The translations under genes and the position numbers were made by a program. Below, piece after piece: positions 56,901 to 64,000 of a stretch of DNA of 64,000 nucleotides. A model generated the notes under the pieces. The model was not told where the DNA came from. It made no database searches and was given only the letters and a program-made list of their open reading frames with translations. Each line of letters begins with the position of its first letter. Position 1 is the first letter of the stretch. The DNA is from Gemmatimonadota bacterium (GTDB lineage Bacteria > Gemmatimonadota > Gemmatimonadetes > Gemmatimonadales > Gemmatimonadaceae), in NCBI GenBank assembly GCA_026387915.1, contig JAPLKS010000020.1, positions 62,001-126,000 on the forward strand. Direction: 5' to 3'.

Positions 56901-57548
56901 TCAGCGCGTGCCGAACAACCGATCGCCGGCGTCGCCGAGTCCGGGCAAGATGTAGCCGCGCTCATTGAGTTCGCGATCGAGCGCGGCGCAGAAGATCGGC
57001 ACATCCGGATGCGCGGCGTGCACGCGCTCGACGCCGGCGGGGGCGGCGACGAGGCAGAGAAAACGAATACGCTGCGCGCCGGCTTTTTTGAGCGCGTCGA
57101 GTGCTGCGACGGCGCTGCCGCCGGTTGCGAGCATGGGATCGAGTAACAGAAAGTCCCGTTCTGACGCGTCGCCGGGAATCTTGAAGTAGTACGCAACCGG
57201 TTCGAGCGTGTCGTGATCGCGATAAAGGCCAATATGTCCGACCCGCGCCGACGGCACGAGCTTGAGAATCCCCTCTACCATACCGAGGCCGGCGCGCAGG
57301 ATGGGAACGAGTGTCAGTTTTTTCCCGGCCACACGTTGCCCAATGGTCTGCTCCAGTGGGGTTTCCACCCCGACCGGTTCTAGGGCGAGGTCGATGGTGG
57401 CCTCGTAGGCCATGAGCATGGCGATTTCGTCGACGAGTTCCTTAAATATCTTTGTCGGCGTCGCTTTGTCGCGCAGGATGGTGACCTTGTGCTGGACCAG
57501 CGGATGGCGGACGAGGGTCAGTCCGTTGAGGGCAGGGGTAGTCGGCAT
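56901..57548 (-). CDS. upp: Uracil phosphoribosyltransferase
   Basis: Upp salvages uracil to UMP with PRPP. The 215-aa enzyme starts [23 protein letters not shown] and has [13 protein letters not shown], the PRPP motif [13 protein letters not shown], and the C-terminal uracil-binding [19 protein letters not shown] at 57548 is favoured because it leads straight into the conserved N-terminus; 14 upstream codons in frame are less plausible. It is the last clear chromosomal housekeeping gene before the AT-rich island. Confidence 0.97.
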
Positions 57549-57773
57549 GCCTACTAGTCTAGTATTCTTGCGGATATGAAAGAATAACAAAATCCCATGA
57601 ATGTTACACCTCTAGTCGAACACCATAAACCGTTGCCACAGAACCACTTACAGCCGCCAGTCAATTTCAGAGAAACCCGTAAAACTCGCGCACACGGCAA
57701 TTATGACGAAAGTTTTGACGAAGTTTGCTGAAGATAAATAATAAACAATAAAACAAAGAACGGTTGTAATTCT

Positions 57774-57828
57774 GGCGAAACGTGAGAACAGAAAAAGTGA
57801 ACCGCATAATCACTTTTTCCGTTCTCTC
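57774..57828. repeat. Hairpin repeat A (left copy of paired island hairpins)
   Basis: GGCGAAACGTGA leads into a 17-position stem (57784-57800 with 57810-57826, one A-C mismatch) around a 9-nt loop ACCGCATAA. The inner arm AAAAAGTGA/TCACTTTTT is identical to copy B, 2.7 kb away, whereas two outer base pairs differ by compensatory changes. No gene ends here on either strand, so a plain terminator role is unlikely for this copy. Confidence 0.85.
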
Positions 57829-57990
57829 ATCTACACCGAACACTGGGACAGAAACCACATCATTTTTAGACTAAAGATTCTTTTATAGTCAAATTTGAAG
57901 AAAGCGATTCCCTAACACACAAGACAAATCTACTCATTTCTTATGTGTTAAGTGCTTATCCTACAAGCAGTTAGACCACCAAACGCGTGC

Positions 57991-58023
57991 TTGACCATTG
58001 AGGAATAACACTTAAATTTAAGT
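57991..58023 (+). promoter_or_regulatory. Recombinase promoter candidate with 14-bp palindrome
   Basis: TTGACC (57991-57996) and TAAATT (58013-58018) are spaced 16 nt. The -10 lies inside the perfect palindrome ACTTAAATTTAAGT (58010-58023), 36 nt upstream of the recombinase start. The palindrome may be an operator or a recombinase binding site. Confidence 0.45.
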
Positions 58024-58058
58024 ATCAGTCTATTCTTATACACTAAAAAGGGGAGATT

Positions 58059-58724
58059 TTGAAGAAACTCACTGTCGTCTATTGCAGAGTCAGTAGTAAG
58101 AACCAGTCACTGGAACGTCAGGAACACGGACTTTCTCATTCTGCGACGATTCTAGGCGGTTTAAAGACACAAGCAGATAGGATTTACTCGGAAAAGGTGA
58201 GTGGTGCGGTCAAGTTCTCGGAACGAACAGAAGGTCGGAAACTTCTAGATGCAGTATCTAACGGTGAGATTGGCACGATTCACTTCACAGAACTGTCAAG
58301 AGTTGGACGAAATACCATTGATGTACTGACTACGATGCAGTTCTTTGCCGAGCATCTAGTTCAAGTCATCATCGCCAAAGAAAACATCCGACTGCTAACA
58401 GAGACAGGAGAAATAGACAACGTCAGCAACATGATTATGACGGTGCTTGGTTGCGTTGCACAGATGGAACGTCAAACAATACGAGAGAGAACGCTAGAGG
58501 GTATTGCACTAGCTCGCATCAAAGGAAAATATCTAGGACGCAAGGTTGGTACTGTTGAATCTCGCGCGAAGTTCTTGAGCAAGCCGCAATCAGTGAAAGC
58601 GATTAAACTGTTAAGAGACAATCTTTCCGTAACTCACGTTAGTAAAATCCTGAATGCATCGCCAATAACGATTTCTAAAGTTCGCAGAATGATAGTTGAT
58701 AAGAACGGAGTTTTTACATGCTAA
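58059..58724 (+). CDS. Serine recombinase (resolvase/invertase family)
   Basis: This 221-aa protein has the catalytic domain first (VVYCRVSSKNQSLERQEHGL with the nucleophilic serine in RVSS, and LSRVGRNTIDVLTTMQFF). The long E helix follows (VLGCVAQMERQTIRERTLEGIALARIKGKYLGRKVGT), then a C-terminal helix-turn-helix (KAIKLLRDNLSVTHVSKILNASPITISKVRRMI). This is the domain order of Tn3 resolvases and DNA invertases, not of large integrases or IS607 transposases. The TTG start at 58059 is supported by GGGGAG seven nucleotides upstream. It is the likely mobility or dimer-resolution enzyme of the island. Confidence 0.93.
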   Translation: MKKLTVVYCRVSSKNQSLERQEHGLSHSATILGGLKTQADRIYSEKVSGAVKFSERTEGRKLLDAVSNGEIGTIHFTELSRVGRNTIDVLTTMQFFAEHLVQVIIAKENIRLLTETGEIDNVSNMIMTVLGCVAQMERQTIRERTLEGIALARIKGKYLGRKVGTVESRAKFLSKPQSVKAIKLLRDNLSVTHVSKILNASPITISKVRRMIVDKNGVFTC

Positions 58725-58735
58725 CAGAAACTTGT

Positions 58736-58768
58736 ACTAAGACTATATGGTTTTTCACTAAGACTATA
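58736..58768. repeat. Two direct 12-bp repeats just after the recombinase gene
   Basis: ACTAAGACTATA occurs at 58736-58747 and 58757-58768, with a period of 21 nt (two helical turns). Repeats phased like this beside a resolvase gene could be protein-binding subsites. The surrounding 440-nt spacer (58725-59164) has no ORF I support and otherwise holds the minus-strand terminator. Confidence 0.7.
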
Positions 58769-58904
58769 CATCAGTAGTACTACACAGCTAAAGAATTACA
58801 CCGTGAAATACTTCAACAACTCGCGTTACACGGTTGACTAAACCACAGAGACTTGCATAGGTAAAACAGGTTCAGGAACAGATATTCAAAAAAGTTTTCG
58901 CTGC

Positions 58905-58931
58905 AAAAAAGCCAACCCAAAAGGTTGGCTT
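58905..58931 (-). terminator. Minus-strand intrinsic terminator inside the leader of the Rep-like gene
   Basis: AAGCCAACC and GGTTGGCTT (58909-58917, 58923-58931) form a 9-bp stem with a 5-nt loop; read on the minus strand it is followed by six Ts. No convincing minus-strand protein gene ends here, so it may terminate a small antisense RNA. I found no clear promoter for such an RNA. Confidence 0.7.
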
Positions 58932-59164
58932 CGTCGTATATGGCAACACTGTTACAAAGAATCGTTGATTTTCGCAGTCCAGGAATGGTCAGCACGTATA
59001 AATAGTTTTGCTCACGGGAATCCACTTGTGAACACAGACATAGCGTGCAAATCAATCATCGTTATCCTTGACTGTTTTACCACTATTCATCTGTACATCT
59101 GAGACACACAAAAGGTCACGGTTTAGAAGAGGGTGACTCTAAACAAAACATATCTAAGAACATA

Positions 59165-59968
59165 ATGACAAACACAACAACATATTCACTTCTCCAAGAA
59201 GCTCCCAGCAACAAGGAATGCATAACAAATAGAGATGCATTAAAGACCTGGATAAGCAAACAACACTGGGACATCGTTGTTCAGTTTCAGCCGAAGTCTG
59301 ATGCCGTGACAACAATCCAATATCAGTTCGCTAACCAACTACGAGCAAAGTCAGTTCGGAGAATAGCAGGAGTCAACACAAGTGCGAGTTACAAAAGATA
59401 CTCGCATTCAAATCCTCCGAAATCAAAAACCGTAACCATAGCGCGGCAACAAGTTGATGCTGTTGAGTACCAACAACGACTTCAGGGAACGTTTAGACGA
59501 GAGCTTAAGAAGCATCTAAAGTGTGGAATAAAAATGTTATCGATTGTTGAGCAGTATGCAGATAAACGCGCTCATGGAGCCGTGTACATGTCAGCAGTAG
59601 GAATGAACAACATGTCTGATGATGTAATCATTCAGGCAGCTAAGAAAGCCAATCTCGTGATTGGTCGAAACATTCATGGTGCTTATTTCATTTCAACAAA
59701 ATCAGCTAATGAAGAACATTACTGCAACAAAATCAAATACCTGATGAAGACTTTAGGTAATAAGCACTTAGAGGATTCAGGACAACTCGATAACTCTCAA
59801 GATTCTTGGGAAATGAGCGAAGCGTTGTACAGCCAGTTTGCTAAAGAACGCGGATTGGACATTATCCATCATAGAACTCCAAAATCAGTTACACACTTTA
59901 AACCCAAATATGCCGATATCTCTAAAGATGTTATGAGATTTGGTTGGTTGGAAAGGAGTAAGACATGA
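59165..59968 (+). CDS. Island protein, tentatively HUH/Rep-like replication initiator
   Basis: I do not recognise this 267-aa protein with certainty. Its layout recalls small rolling-circle Rep proteins. There is an N-terminal hydrophobic strand with WDIVVQFQP (motif 1-like). Next comes KMLSIVEQYADKRAHGAVYMSAV, where HxH would read RAH. A helix IIQAAKKANLVIG and IHGAYFIS follow, then CNKIKYLMKTLGNK with a YxxK (motif 3-like). If so, the first metal-binding histidine is lost. It stands behind a 440-nt leader with a minus-strand terminator, overlaps a ribbon-helix-helix gene by 4 nt, and is followed by an excisionase-like gene. That is the order of a replication-control region. The assignment is inference. 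Confidence 0.5.
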   Translation: MTNTTTYSLLQEAPSNKECITNRDALKTWISKQHWDIVVQFQPKSDAVTTIQYQFANQLRAKSVRRIAGVNTSASYKRYSHSNPPKSKTVTIARQQVDAVEYQQRLQGTFRRELKKHLKCGIKMLSIVEQYADKRAHGAVYMSAVGMNNMSDDVIIQAAKKANLVIGRNIHGAYFISTKSANEEHYCNKIKYLMKTLGNKHLEDSGQLDNSQDSWEMSEALYSQFAKERGLDIIHHRTPKSVTHFKPKYADISKDVMRFGWLERSKT

Positions 59969-60117
59969 ACACTAAAGCATTAACAGTGAAAATCACTGAG
60001 GAAAAATATCTGATATTAATCGAGCTGCTGATGACGCGATTTCATTGCAAAACCATGGCAGAGGTTATTCCACGTTTGATTGAGTTCGCGTACAGAAATC
60101 ACATCATCATCAAGTAG
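59965..60117 (+). CDS. Small ribbon-helix-helix (CopG/Arc-like) DNA-binding protein
   Basis: The 50-aa product (MNTKALTVKITEEKYLILIE...) has a short beta strand ALTVKIT, then a helix EEKYLILIELLMTRF, a turn, and a second helix TMAEVIPRLIEFAYRNH. This pattern and length are typical of CopG-type repressors, which bind DNA as dimers through the paired strand. Its ATG overlaps the stop of the Rep-like gene (ATGA). CopG proteins often regulate rep genes, so it may control its upstream neighbour. Confidence 0.7.
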   Translation: MNTKALTVKITEEKYLILIELLMTRFHCKTMAEVIPRLIEFAYRNHIIIK

Positions 60118-60147
60118 CAGCATCCCTACACAATAAAAGAGGTTACA

Positions 60148-60348
60148 ATGAAGGTCACGCAGACTATAGAACAGAAATATTTCAGTATCAACTCGTTAGC
60201 AATGTCGTATGGCATGTATCGAGATTCGTTCGCACGTTTGTTAGATGCCTTGCTCGTGGAACGCAAAGACATTCGCCCAATACGCATTGGACGAAAGGTG
60301 TTGTACATCAAGAAGGAAATAGATTCATTGATGATGGTGTCGGCATGA
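60148..60348 (+). CDS. Excisionase-like helix-turn-helix protein
   Basis: This 66-aa protein reads as a winged-helix of the excisionase/AlpA type: YFSINSLAMSYGMYRDSFARLLDALL as the helix-turn-helix and IRPIRIGRKVLYIKKEIDSLM as the wing with the RIGRKVLY motif. AAAGAGG precedes the ATG by six nucleotides. Proteins of this kind bend attachment-site DNA or regulate mobile elements. It is the last gene of the rightward operon; a perfect intrinsic terminator follows 25 nt after its stop. Confidence 0.75.
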   Translation: MKVTQTIEQKYFSINSLAMSYGMYRDSFARLLDALLVERKDIRPIRIGRKVLYIKKEIDSLMMVSA

Positions 60349-60372
60349 CTCAAGCAACGAGTAGATAGCAAG

Positions 60373-60407
60373 AAAAACTCTCAGACGAATACTCTGAGAG
60401 TTTTTTT
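60373..60407 (+). terminator. Intrinsic terminator of the island operon
   Basis: AAAAACTCTCAGA and TCTGAGAGTTTTT form a perfect stem with a 7-nt loop (CGAATAC) and end in seven Ts. The A-run on the left makes it usable on both strands, so it may also stop leftward transcription. Confidence 0.9.
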
Positions 60408-60473
60408 ATGCACCACCGACATGTTATGACAGACTATCCGACCTCATCGTTCAGTCATCAAATCACGGTGAAC

Positions 60474-60528
60474 GGTGAAACGTGACACCGAAAAAAGTGA
60501 ACACACATAATCACTTTTTCTGGTGTCT
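60474..60528. repeat. Hairpin repeat B (right copy of paired island hairpins)
   Basis: GGTGAAACGTGA leads into a 17-position stem (60484-60500 with 60511-60527; one A-C mismatch and one G-T wobble) around the 10-nt loop ACACACATAA. Compared with copy A, the pairs A-T and G-C are both replaced by C-G, which keeps the stem. Its right end reaches the stop codon of the leftward gene at 60527, so this copy could double as a terminator. Confidence 0.85.
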
Positions 60529-61144
60529 AGAATTTAATCTGTGAGAAGTCTGGCTTTGCTCGTGTTAGAAATGAACTGCGCGTTGCCAAGATTTGGTCCT
60601 TGATTTGGTACATCACTGGTGGGTTCAACACTTCTAAAGCGTTATTCAATGCGTAAATCTTTACATCGCGCTTTGTCATCGTTCCACGCTTCACCATTTC
60701 TGTACAATAAAAACTGTTAGATCCAATCACCCGCGGCATGTTATCAGCGCATGGTTGTTCTTCAGGTGGATCACGGTCGAGCCAGTCTGAGTATCGAGAA
60801 AAGTCTTCACGTATGTGTTCTAACGCTGCTTCATACGCTTCTTCACATTTTTCATTCATTCTTATTCGTTTCTCATCCGTACCCTGTTTGAGCGCGTGCA
60901 TTCTTTCGTATCTACCCTCAAGAAACTGTGCAATCCTTAGTAGTTTTTGATAACGGATGATGTGTTTTGGCTTCGTCTCTCGTCTGGCTGCTTTTTCTTT
61001 TTGCCAGCTTTGTTTCATCTCATCTATTTGTTTTACGCTCAGCACTGTAGACAGCATCTTATTCGAAACAGTATCGCCCTTTTCAAGACGCTTCATAAGT
61101 GTTTTGATGCGAGCAATGTGTTGGCGTTTGGTCACATACCACAC
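60527..61144 (-). CDS. Unknown charged helical protein of the island
   Basis: I recognise no family in this 205-aa protein. It is rich in Lys, Arg and Glu with long predicted helices (KRLEKGDTVSNKMLSTVLSVKQIDEM; RYQKLLRIAQFLEGRYERMHALKQ; EEAYEAALEHIREDFSRYSDWL) and a small C-terminal part with two aromatic residues and one cysteine (GSNSFYCTEMV). It has no signal or membrane segment. It probably starts at GTG 61144 (MWYVTKRQ); the next ATG is 17 codons in. It has the island's AT-rich codon use and its stop lies at the edge of hairpin B. Nucleic-acid binding would suit its charge but is a guess. Confidence 0.65.
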   Translation of the reverse strand: MWYVTKRQHIARIKTLMKRLEKGDTVSNKMLSTVLSVKQIDEMKQSWQKEKAARRETKPKHIIRYQKLLRIAQFLEGRYERMHALKQGTDEKRIRMNEKCEEAYEAALEHIREDFSRYSDWLDRDPPEEQPCADNMPRVIGSNSFYCTEMVKRGTMTKRDVKIYALNNALEVLNPPVMYQIKDQILATRSSFLTRAKPDFSQIKF

Positions 61145-61255: not shown

Positions 61256-61318
61256 ATACTTGTGTAAGCCGACCAAGCCAAATTGCACCGCAGCCGACAG
61301 ATACTGGGAGAGCCTTTA

Positions 61319-62467
61319 ATGAGATACGCCGCCAAATGGCTCGGTTTTGATCGTGGACGTGAGGGATCCTACGAGGAAGTCTATTGGCTAGGCGTCCTTC
61401 GAACTTTAGCTAATCACGAGGGCGAATCTATCCGCGAAGAGAGTTCGCCCGTGTACACTTCTCTTTCCCAAGAGTTTCCTGAAACGGCTTGGATTGGTAC
61501 CAGCCCCGATCGCAACTTCTTTCGCGGGTATCAGAGTCCGTGGACCCTACTTGGAGTGCTAACCCCCACGATTAAAACAAAGGGGGCGATCCATGTGACT
61601 CCATTGGGACGTGCGCTCTTGGAAGACCGAGTTTCGACGCGTGCGGTCTGGATACAGGCGATGGCTGAGCTAGTCGAAGAAGACGGCGAGCGATCATTCG
61701 CCGTGCTCGCAAGTGCGTTTCTCGACGTCGGAGATCAAACTCTTTCTTTCGAACAGATCTACTGGGGTATCGAACATAACTGGCGTCCTGGCGACGGTTC
61801 ACTTCTAGCAGCGCTCGCTTCGAATAGTCAGCCTCCAGACGACAAGACAACTCCAGCCCGTCGCTTACGCGCAATGCTAAAGGTGATGGTTCGTCACGGT
61901 TTGCTCACCCAGACAGGTGACGGTTGGCAGGCACGGTCACCTGATCTGCTTTCGGCTATCGTGCATGGGAAAACTATTGGCGATTACCCTCCAGTCGCCG
62001 TTGTGCCCGCTAGCACCAGCACGTTGCCAGACGGGGAACTTGCGACGCTCGCTAATGAAGCGGATGCTATGCCAATGCCCGTCCGCGAGAGAATCATGCG
62101 TGCCATAGCAGTGCGCCGTGGGCAGCCGCGTTTCAGAAGGCAGTTGCTCGCGCTCTATCAAGGACGATGCGCAATAACGCAGTTCGATGCCGCGGCTGCA
62201 TTGGAGGCGGCGCATATCGTTCCGTTCTCTGTGGACGGCACGCATGCTCCAGAAAACGGACTCCTACTTCGAGCCGACGTGCATACCCTGTTCGACCTGA
62301 ACTACATAGGGGTGGATCCTGCCAGCTTCTCTGTGGTTATGTCGAAGCGAATCGCTGCGACGAAATACGGCGACTTGGACGGGCGTTCCCTGCACCTTCC
62401 AATCAGCATTGCCGACTATCCGTCAGCGACTCATCTACAGGCACATCTCGCGCAGCTCGAAACCTGA
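61319..62467 (+). CDS. HNH restriction endonuclease-like protein
   Basis: The 382-aa protein has a predicted DNA-recognition part (about 1-270) with winged-helix-like segments and a C-terminal HNH domain (about 275-382). The HNH domain has GRCAITQFDAAAALEAAHIVPFSVDGTHAPENGLLLRADVHTLFD split over its beta-beta-alpha metal site: AAHI with the catalytic His, N in PENGLL, and H in VHTLFD. ATG at 61319 follows GGGAGAG by seven nucleotides. It converges on a C5-methyltransferase gene, ending 3 nt from it, so it is the likely nuclease of a type II restriction-modification system. The sequence specificity is unknown. It is GC-richer than the island to its left. Confidence 0.85.
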   Translation: MRYAAKWLGFDRGREGSYEEVYWLGVLRTLANHEGESIREESSPVYTSLSQEFPETAWIGTSPDRNFFRGYQSPWTLLGVLTPTIKTKGAIHVTPLGRALLEDRVSTRAVWIQAMAELVEEDGERSFAVLASAFLDVGDQTLSFEQIYWGIEHNWRPGDGSLLAALASNSQPPDDKTTPARRLRAMLKVMVRHGLLTQTGDGWQARSPDLLSAIVHGKTIGDYPPVAVVPASTSTLPDGELATLANEADAMPMPVRERIMRAIAVRRGQPRFRRQLLALYQGRCAITQFDAAAALEAAHIVPFSVDGTHAPENGLLLRADVHTLFDLNYIGVDPASFSVVMSKRIAATKYGDLDGRSLHLPISIADYPSATHLQAHLAQLET

Positions 62468-62470
62468 GCG

Positions 62471-63607
62471 TCACTTGCGCTGAAAAAGGTGTTCCTGCCC
62501 AAGTGATTTCACTGCGTCACTGAGAGTAATCCTTTTTCGCCCAAAGATCTGAGTGGCGATTGCGTTCCCTACGGCAGCTGCTAGCAGCGGAGGGACGGCG
62601 TTTCCAACCTGACGGATGGGATGACGGGAAGTCCCCGAAAACGACCACCAGTCAGGAAAAGTTTGAATGCGAGCACTTTCCCTTGGTGTAACCTCACGAG
62701 GTTCAGTCGGATGAACATGTCCCTTTCCACCCCCCTTGTCCGAGCCGACGATGATTGTGAAACTCGGTCTATCGAGATCCAGCCTGTTGATGCGAGTCTT
62801 GGGATCTCGTTCGCCAGGCTTAAGTGACTGATACCGATCGATGATTCGCTCACTGTGTTCCCTGCCAGTGTGATTTGCGATGTCGGAAGTGCCGATCTTC
62901 GGCAGCCCCCTGAGCGCGTCTCTGACATTTCGGTATGAAGGCTTGGCTGGCGAGAAGAGATCAGAACCTTCCGTCGTCCACGAGTCAATAGACCCCACAG
63001 CCTTTCCGATACGACTGCCAATCAAGAAGACTCGATCTCGGTATTGCGGCACTCCGAAGCTCACGGAGTTGAGGCGTAGCACAGATACTTCGTAGCGCAT
63101 GCCACGTGCGGGACGCGAAAGTTTGTCTACGATGAGCTCAAGCAGCTTGCCGCCATCAATCGTCAAGAGCCCGAAGACATTCTCGAACAAGAAAGTTTCG
63201 GGATTGAGTGCCTTCAGCACGCGAAGGTACTCAAAGGCAAGGGTTCCACGAGCATCCGCCATGCCGCGACGTTTGCCAAAAATGCTGAATGCTTGGCATG
63301 GTGGACCACCAGAAAGCACACTGATCTCGCCTGAGCGTAGGTCAGCGGCTTCTGCGATTGCCACGGGATCAAGCGCCCTAATGTCTTGCTTGACAATGAG
63401 GGCTGGGCGATTGTGGTTCAGCTGCCTCGCACGGGAGTTGAGTTGTGCAAGCGAGATACAGCTATGAAAGTCAATGTCCGTCGCAACGGCAGTGTGGAAG
63501 CCAACAGCATCAAGACCAAGGTCAAGCCCACCGCCTCCAGAAAACAGACTGAAGATTGTGGGTGAGTCCTTAATGCGCGCGCGTTTCGTTGTCTTCGCTA
63601 CGCTCAC
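62471..63607 (-). CDS. DNA cytosine-5 methyltransferase
   Basis: The 378-aa enzyme has all core C5-methylase motifs: I (FSLFSGGGGLDLGLDAVGF, SAM), IV (SGGPPCQAF with the catalytic Cys), VI (ENVFGLL), VIII (PQYRDRVFLIG), IX (RESARIQTFPDW) and X (QVGNAVPP). The variable target-recognition region lies at about 220-290. Motif order is the standard m5C order. It would protect the host from the adjacent HNH nuclease. GTG at 63607 directly follows the stop of a small upstream ORF, with GGGAAG as ribosome binding site. Confidence 0.95.
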   Translation of the reverse strand: MSVAKTTKRARIKDSPTIFSLFSGGGGLDLGLDAVGFHTAVATDIDFHSCISLAQLNSRARQLNHNRPALIVKQDIRALDPVAIAEAADLRSGEISVLSGGPPCQAFSIFGKRRGMADARGTLAFEYLRVLKALNPETFLFENVFGLLTIDGGKLLELIVDKLSRPARGMRYEVSVLRLNSVSFGVPQYRDRVFLIGSRIGKAVGSIDSWTTEGSDLFSPAKPSYRNVRDALRGLPKIGTSDIANHTGREHSERIIDRYQSLKPGERDPKTRINRLDLDRPSFTIIVGSDKGGGKGHVHPTEPREVTPRESARIQTFPDWWSFSGTSRHPIRQVGNAVPPLLAAAVGNAIATQIFGRKRITLSDAVKSLGQEHLFQRK

Positions 63608-63765: not shown

Positions 63766-63999
63766 CTACGATTTTGCCAAGGTACCGAAGAACTGTTGTG
63801 ATGCCGGTGCAAATGGTGATGGTGTTTGTTGTGATTGTGCAGTGTTCAAATCAGACTCCAGAAACTTTTGCAATTTCGCACGATCCTCATTCAGCAGTTC
63901 CCTCGTGAACGTGTGCTTGCGTTGGTAGAGGTCAAGCATTTCGCGGTTCGCGTGACCAAAATAGTATTGAATATGAGAACGAACGATTCCAGCTGACTC
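63766..63999 (-). CDS. Probable tyrosine recombinase, C-terminal fragment (cut by window edge)
   Basis: The frame is open from the right edge for 77 codons to a TAG at 63766-63768. It begins ESAGIVRSHIQYYFGHANREML and contains DLYQRKHTFTRELLNEDRAKL. The FGHAN...DLYQ spacing fits the LGH...Y catalytic end of phage-type integrases (His and the nucleophilic Tyr). The rest, including the Arg/Lys residues, lies outside the window. A Gln/Pro/Ser-rich tail follows. An integrase beside a restriction-modification pair suggests a second mobile segment; the call rests on a short stretch. Confidence 0.55.
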   Translation of the reverse strand, partial: ESAGIVRSHIQYYFGHANREMLDLYQRKHTFTRELLNEDRAKLQKFLESDLNTAQSQQTPSPFAPASQQFFGTLAKS

Positions 64000-64000
64000 A

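What the first reader, a model, noticed from the sequence alone, without database searches (positions are those of the whole stretch)
57774..60528. Two hairpins 2.7 kb apart with compensatory stem changes frame a recombinase/Rep-like module
Copies A (57774-57828) and B (60474-60528) share GG(C/T)GAAACGTGA, an identical inner stem AAAAAGTGA/TCACTTTTT and a CATAA loop end. The outer stems differ yet still pair: A-T at 57788/57822 becomes C-G at 60488/60523, and G-C at 57786/57824 becomes C-G at 60486/60525. Two compensatory substitutions indicate selection on structure, in DNA or RNA. Copy A ends no gene, so these may be element ends, nicking origins or recombinase sites of an undescribed small element.
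Basis: partly seen in the sequence, partly recalled or inferred. Interest (0 to 1): 0.72.

Follow-up and report, generated by a model that had tools for sequence, protein, structure and literature searches.

The report
Paired hairpins inside a mobile island
The two look-alike DNA hairpins are real and are found only inside a small, undescribed mobile DNA island of lake bacteria (Gemmatimonadota), but they lie within the island rather than marking its ends; they probably serve its copying or transfer, with a role in stopping transcription as the close alternative.

Summary
The hairpins are real at the stated coordinates, with two compensatory pair changes. They do not bound an element. Copy A lies about 200 bp inside the left end, and copy B is internal, in a ~7.5-kb tyrosine-integrase island at upp. 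Its true ends are the 11-bp core TATTCTTTCAT (window 57576-57586, and next to the integrase on contig C22). Empty upp sites exist in sister species. The island family (serine recombinase, Rep-like protein, two small ORFs, variable cargo, integrase) was found in four species of one genus. The corrected covariance model finds five strong hairpins in 395 phylum genomes, all inside these islands. Only this genome has two in one island. A relative with a complete 4.0-kb island has none, so 'framing' is not general. The Rep-like protein has an HUH-like predicted fold (low confidence; best match SIRV1 Rep, Z 8.7). Hairpin stems are conserved while the loop differs between the two Rep/recombinase clades. 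Best explanation: a single-strand-acting replication or transfer site (nick site or single-strand origin), 0.40. Main rival: an island-borne terminator or insulator (0.33). Copy B sits at a gene end, and weak look-alikes in relatives all sit near gene 3' ends. Nothing here shows activity.

The parts
57576..57586 (-). left attachment core (TATTCTTTCAT on the - strand), the start codon region of the displaced MKEYQ gene
   Evidence: same core beside the integrase on G000:C22:354934 and at both ends in G082 and G263; uninterrupted ..TGGTATTCTTTCAT..upp in sister genomes
57774..57785 (+). conserved 12-nt flank GGCGAAACGTGA of hairpin A, overlapping the stem foot
57784..57826 (+). hairpin A (17-bp arms 57784-57800 / 57810-57826, 9-nt loop)
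   Evidence: conserved in G082 and G263 (twice)
58059..58724 (+). serine recombinase (resolvase/invertase type, intact YCRVSS motif)
   Evidence: PF00239 E 6e-28; homologues in G082, G263, G057
58909..58931 (.). inverted repeat AAGCCAACC/GGTTGGCTT after the recombinase gene, terminator-like
59165..59968 (+). Rep-like protein, predicted HUH-type fold; conserved H137 and Y192-x-x-K195, second His of HUH absent
   Evidence: no Pfam, PHROGs or NCBIfam family
59965..60117 (+). 50-aa small ORF conserved in G082 and G057
60148..60348 (+). small HTH (AlpA/excisionase-like) ORF conserved in G082 and G057
   Evidence: weak HTH_17, synteny
60373..60405 (+). canonical-looking intrinsic terminator after the HTH gene
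   Evidence: perfect 13-bp inverted repeat plus T run
60474..60485 (+). conserved 12-nt flank GGTGAAACGTGA of hairpin B, overlapping the stem foot
60484..60527 (+). hairpin B (17-bp arms, 10-nt loop), overlapping the stop codon of the 205-aa ORF
60527..61144 (-). 205-aa orphan ORF (cargo)
   Evidence: no relative in 395 phylum genomes, phages or plasmids
61283..62467 (+). HNH endonuclease (cargo, restriction-like)
   Evidence: PF13391 E 2e-13
62471..63607 (-). C5 cytosine DNA methyltransferase (cargo)
   Evidence: PF00145 E 7e-56
63772..64000 (-). 3' part of the tyrosine integrase; runs on past the window to the contig end and onto G000:C22
   Evidence: 98% identical to the G082 integrase; 89-bp contig overlap

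Best explanation
The hairpin, with its conserved 12-nt flank, is a cis-acting site of a small integrative element that works when the DNA is single-stranded, during rolling-circle-type copying or transfer of the excised circle. It would be either the site nicked by the element's HUH-type Rep-like protein or a single-strand origin used to rebuild the second strand. Shown: the element, its att sites, its gene content, the strict hairpin-element link in the genomes searched, and conserved pairing. Supported only by a low-confidence model: the HUH-like fold. Inferred: that the element replicates this way, that the Rep-like protein is active, and that the hairpin is its site.
For: All strong hairpins in 18 genus, 179 family and 395 phylum genomes lie in islands of this family. 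The Rep-like model (mean pLDDT 57.8) matches SIRV1 ORF119 best (Z 8.7, rmsd 4.0, 111 of 116 residues), then AAV and geminivirus Reps and a hairpin-binding RAYT at Z 5-6; the chain 2X3G is a documented Rep (PMC4187194). Motif order I, H (motif II), YxxK (motif III) is kept in three diverged homologues. Stems are conserved while loops differ between Rep/recombinase clades: G082 and G263 share ACTGACGTTA, whereas A and B share CATAA. Copy A has no annotated gene end beside it and lies at a fixed place about 200 bp inside the left att. The - strand, with the conserved flank 3' of the hairpin, folds better in three of four copies. Hairpins are known origins: nick site in a hairpin and Rep-independent sso (PMC5714925), ICEBs1 sso (PMC4595007), SNJ2 ori hairpin (PMC13107129).
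Against: The G057 element has intact homologous genes and no such hairpin. The hairpin is shared by elements whose Rep-like proteins are only 36% identical and is absent from G057, whose serine recombinase is closer to the hairpin-bearing G082/G263 than the window's own (57% against 48%). The HUH motif lacks its second His. Model confidence is low, and middling Z values are common by chance. Copy B sits where a terminator would. No circular form, copy number or nick has been seen.
Confidence: 0.4

Rival explanations
1. The hairpins are bidirectional transcription terminators or insulators carried by the island. B separates the converging HTH operon and the 205-aa gene. A would block transcription that enters the left end from the promoter of the displaced MKEYQ gene on the upp side.
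For: B overlaps the stop codon of the 205-aa ORF between convergent genes. All ten weak model hits inspected in related genomes (six other species and one in G000) lie close to the 3' end of a gene by a crude gene call, most between convergent genes; in G323 their arms are built of GTGAAAC units like the A/B flank. Both strands fold.
Against: No annotated gene ends at A. The HTH operon already has a canonical terminator at 60373-60405. There is no T run after either stem, and the terminator scan does not call them (its loop limit of 8 would also exclude them). Among 38 strong hairpins in 464 kb of the host, mostly GC-rich with short loops, A is unusual (88% purine arm, 9-nt loop) and is one of only two scored as divergent. 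The GTGAAAC-tandem pattern is absent from 483 kb of the host.
Confidence: 0.33
2. The hairpin is a dyad bound as duplex DNA by an element protein: crossover or accessory site of the adjacent serine recombinase (for example multimer resolution, or deletion of the 2.7 kb between directly repeated A and B), or an operator of the small HTH proteins.
For: A lies 230 bp upstream of the recombinase gene, a usual place for res sites. A and B are direct repeats. The recombinase catalytic motif is intact.
Against: The dyad (17-bp arms, 9-10-bp centre) is long for a resolvase site, from general knowledge. G057 has the recombinase without the hairpin, although its recombinase is closer to those of G082/G263 than the window's is. 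Compensatory half-site changes fit a structure better than a fixed protein site.
Confidence: 0.15
3. One reading: A and B are the ends of an undescribed 2.7-kb element that moves as a unit.
For: Two copies in direct orientation around recombinase, Rep-like and HTH genes in this genome.
Against: Only this genome has two hairpins in one island; G082 has one and G057 none. Real ends with a shared core lie outside A and far beyond B, and empty sites match those ends. No hairpin-bounded empty site was seen.
Confidence: 0.03

Closest known systems
Integrative and mobilizable elements (IMEs) with relaxases related to rolling-circle initiators (Streptococcus; PMC5357655)
   Same: small islands with a tyrosine integrase, an initiator-like gene, small DNA-binding genes and swapped cargo
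   Different: no relaxase family, coupling protein or oriT recognised here; an extra serine recombinase; a Gemmatimonadota host; transfer not shown
ICEBs1 single-strand origin sso1 and RCR plasmid ssos (PMC4595007)
   Same: stem-loops in an integrative element that act when single-stranded and need no Rep
   Different: one 43-nt hairpin with a 12-nt flank rather than three known stem-loops; no sequence relation tested; no activity shown
SNJ2 provirus hairpin origin with Rep-Arvir (PMC13107129)
   Same: conserved hairpin beside a rolling-circle-type gene in a small integrated element
   Different: archaeal, Rep_trans-like rather than HUH-like; that hairpin is downstream of rep and has been tested by mutation
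SIRV1 ORF119 Rep (2X3G) and other HUH Reps
   Same: best fold match of the Rep-like model; Tyr-x-x-Lys motif
   Different: no detectable sequence relation; one of the two HUH histidines missing; low-confidence model
Intrinsic terminators and GTGAAAC-unit gene-end hairpins of Gemmatimonadota
   Same: long purine/pyrimidine-armed hairpins; B lies at a gene end
   Different: A is not at an annotated gene end; no T run; sequence specific to the island

Membership tests
Integrative element of the tyrosine-recombinase type | tyrosine recombinase with R..R/H..Y catalytic residues | tested here: met
   PF00589 E 3e-4 in the G057 integrase, though below Pfam's cut-off; invariant R273, R341-R345, H367, Y376 in the integrase alignment. 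In G000 it is split over two contigs
Integrative element of the tyrosine-recombinase type | core sequence at both ends and an empty site in relatives | tested here: met
   G057 19-bp direct repeat
HUH endonuclease / rolling-circle Rep | HUH fold | tested here: inconclusive
   VIA-align Z 8.7 to 2X3G, other HUH Reps Z 5-6, model pLDDT 57.8
HUH endonuclease / rolling-circle Rep | His-hydrophobic-His metal motif | tested here: not met
   only the first His is kept: HGA, HAT, HPM
HUH endonuclease / rolling-circle Rep | catalytic Tyr with nearby Lys (YxxK) | tested here: met
   Y192/K195 and equivalents in three homologues; activity not testable
Integrative and mobilizable element | relaxase and oriT | tested here: inconclusive
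   Rep-like protein matches no relaxase family; the hairpin is only a candidate site
Integrative and mobilizable element | transfer through a helper conjugative element | not testable with these tools
   needs mating assays
Intrinsic terminator | GC-rich stem followed by a T run | tested here: not met
   read from the sequence: no T run after either stem; one search does not call A or B (its loop limit of 8 excludes them anyway)
Intrinsic terminator | position at a gene 3' end | tested here: inconclusive
   B yes; A no in the integrated state
Small element bounded by the hairpins | hairpins at both ends of each copy | tested here: not met
   one hairpin in G082, none in G057
Known structured RNA family | match to Rfam | tested here: not met
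   two sub-threshold matches only, neither at a hairpin

The most novel reading that the evidence does not exclude
A and B are both nick sites of a new single-histidine HUH Rep family, so that copying begun at A can end at B and release a 2.7-kb circle carrying recombinase, Rep and regulators without cargo and integrase. This would be a mobile element with a built-in minimal replicon.
Probability: 0.06. Interest if true: 0.65.

Novelty: new variant of a known kind. Interest (0 to 1): 0.36.

Why it matters
It gives a delimited, previously unannotated family of small mobile islands in a poorly studied phylum, with a Rep-like protein that no family library recognises. It also names a discrete 55-bp site that can be tested directly as origin or terminator. 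It shows that a hairpin pair that looks like element ends can be internal, and that the att sites must be found first.

Tried and rejected
Model R1 was built with the pairing one column out of register (exposed by the slid control). R2 replaces it; the five strong hits are the same. G082:C26 and C31 were considered as two elements: they carry the two opposite att ends of the upp site and overlap by 403 bp at 97.3%, so one element with strain variation is likelier, though not proven. G172's duplicated upp start is probably a contig overlap. Rep, recombinase and hairpin searches in viral contigs and plasmids gave no relative of the Rep-like protein or of the hairpin; the serine recombinase has only distant (under 60%) plasmid relatives. 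The 205-aa ORF has no relative found, so B's gene context could not be compared. Pfam hits of the Rep-like protein (Peptidase_M19, OmpH) are below cut-off and rejected. Promoter-like matches inside the hairpins are no more than chance (7 found, 7.0 expected) and are not kept in G082/G263. Integron attC: no box match seen by eye and no integron integrase recognised; not pursued. Whether the loop tracks Rep rests on two clades only.

Full report
OBSERVATION. Both compensatory changes are correct. Four sequences (A, B, G082, G263) keep 98.4% of 64 pair cells against 48-57% in slid controls, with two pairs changed on both sides; the shuffle control is weaker (76 of 500 reach two such pairs). Single-strand DNA folding gives z -4.2 and -4.4 on the + strand and -5.3 and -3.6 on the - strand. 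A-B similarity ends abruptly outside about 55 bp. In the 64-kb window only four hairpins are as strong.

SETTING. The hairpins lie in a 40%-GC island beside upp in a 60-66%-GC Gemmatimonadota genome. The phylum comes from the record titles of the sister genomes that hold the same gene. The island carries a serine recombinase (PF00239), the Rep-like protein, a 50-aa ORF, a 66-aa HTH ORF, a terminator, hairpin B, a 205-aa orphan, an HNH endonuclease, a C5 methyltransferase and a tyrosine integrase that runs off the contig.

TRUE ENDS. In sister genomes without the island, upp is preceded by TGGTATTCTTTCAT..AATACTAGACT, which starts a divergent gene MKEYQ... In G000, G082 and G263 the upp side reads TTTGTTATTCTTTCAT.. 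and the other side, TTGGTATTCTTTCAT.., abuts the integrase on another contig; G027 shows the integrase side only. The core is TATTCTTTCAT. Contigs C20 and C22 of this genome overlap by 89 bp inside the integrase, giving an island of about 7.5 kb. G057 has a complete 4.0-kb relative elsewhere, with 19-bp direct repeats CGACACTTTCTGGGAATGA. G263 probably has a second island at another site (contigs C1 and C21) with a different integrase. So A is about 200 bp inside the left end and B is internal.

DISTRIBUTION. The Rep-like protein was found in four genomes of one genus and in no other of 395 phylum genomes; a scan of 84,980 species genomes returned only the same sister species. This excludes only relatives those searches could detect. 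The corrected model R2 finds five strong hairpins (78-86 bits) in 179 family and 395 phylum genomes: two here, one in G082, two in G263. G057 has none, and G082's island has no second one.

REP-LIKE PROTEIN. No Pfam, PHROGs, NCBIfam or PDB sequence match above cut-off. A model of the G082 homologue (mean pLDDT 57.8) has as best fold match SIRV1 ORF119 (2X3G; Z 8.7, rmsd 4.0, 111 residues), then AAV Rep, geminivirus Rep and a RAYT at Z 5-6, mixed with unrelated chains at similar Z. Foldseek alone gave no match below E 0.01. ORF119 is a Rep with a catalytic tyrosine (PMC4187194). Three homologues keep one His in motif II and YxxK in motif III, but not the second His. I read this as a probable, not proven, HUH-type protein.

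WHICH PARTNER. A 140-bp block around A is 93% identical between G000 and G263-C1, and the 327-bp left end is 85% identical between G000 and G082, while Rep-like proteins are 36% and recombinases 48% identical. By recombinase G057 is closer to G082/G263 (57%) than G000 is, yet G057 lacks the hairpin. So the hairpin does not follow recombinase descent, and it also spans two integrase types. The loop differs by clade: ACTGACGTTA in G082 and G263 (Rep 86% alike)..CATAA in both A and B of G000. Conserved stem, clade-specific loop and a conserved flank 3' of the hairpin on the better-folding - strand resemble nick sites. A hairpin shared across diverged initiators resembles a single-strand origin, which does not need Rep (PMC5714925; PMC4595007). 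I cannot separate these two and give the joint reading 0.40.

TERMINATOR RIVAL. B abuts the 205-aa stop codon between convergent genes. Weak R2 hits (about 29-42 bits) in G323, G141, G374, G395, G358, G143 and one in G000 are ten of ten close to gene 3' ends by a crude gene call, and G323's are built of GTGAAAC units reminiscent of the A/B flank. Against this, A has no annotated gene end, neither stem has a T run, and among 38 strong hairpins in 464 kb of the host, A has by far the most purine-rich arm and is one of only two scored as divergent. A could still block transcription entering from the displaced MKEYQ promoter; that is inference. I give this 0.33.

VERDICT. Observation confirmed; element-end reading not supported; origin-type reading open. 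The island family looks new at the level of a family but works like known small integrative elements. Interest is moderate.

Noticed in passing
window 57540-57590; L012, L016, L017, L073-L075: The upp/MKEYQ intergenic region is an integration hotspot: near-identical integrases sit there in G000, G082, G263 and G027, while several sister genomes show the uninterrupted site.
   Followed up: yes
window 61283-63607: Island cargo is a restriction-like HNH protein plus a C5 cytosine methyltransferase; G082 carries instead a 574-aa FG-GAP/Big_2 protein flanked by a repeated HTH gene end.
   Followed up: partly
L013 5618-9664: Complete 4.0-kb minimal island of the same family in G057 with 19-bp direct repeats and no hairpin.
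   Followed up: yes
L014 (C1) and L076 (C21): G263 probably holds a second island of the family at another site; shared arm-like motif AGTAACTTCTTTAGTAA near both ends, core near TTTACAACA.
   Followed up: partly
L107 7846, L108 8446, L109 4084, L110 3198: In G323 (another family of the order) long hairpins built of tandem GTGAAAC units lie near gene 3' ends, often between convergent genes; they may be a lineage-specific terminator or 3'-end class.
   Followed up: partly
window 60527-61144: 205-aa lysine/arginine-rich orphan ORF with no relative in the phylum sample, phages or plasmids.
   Followed up: yes
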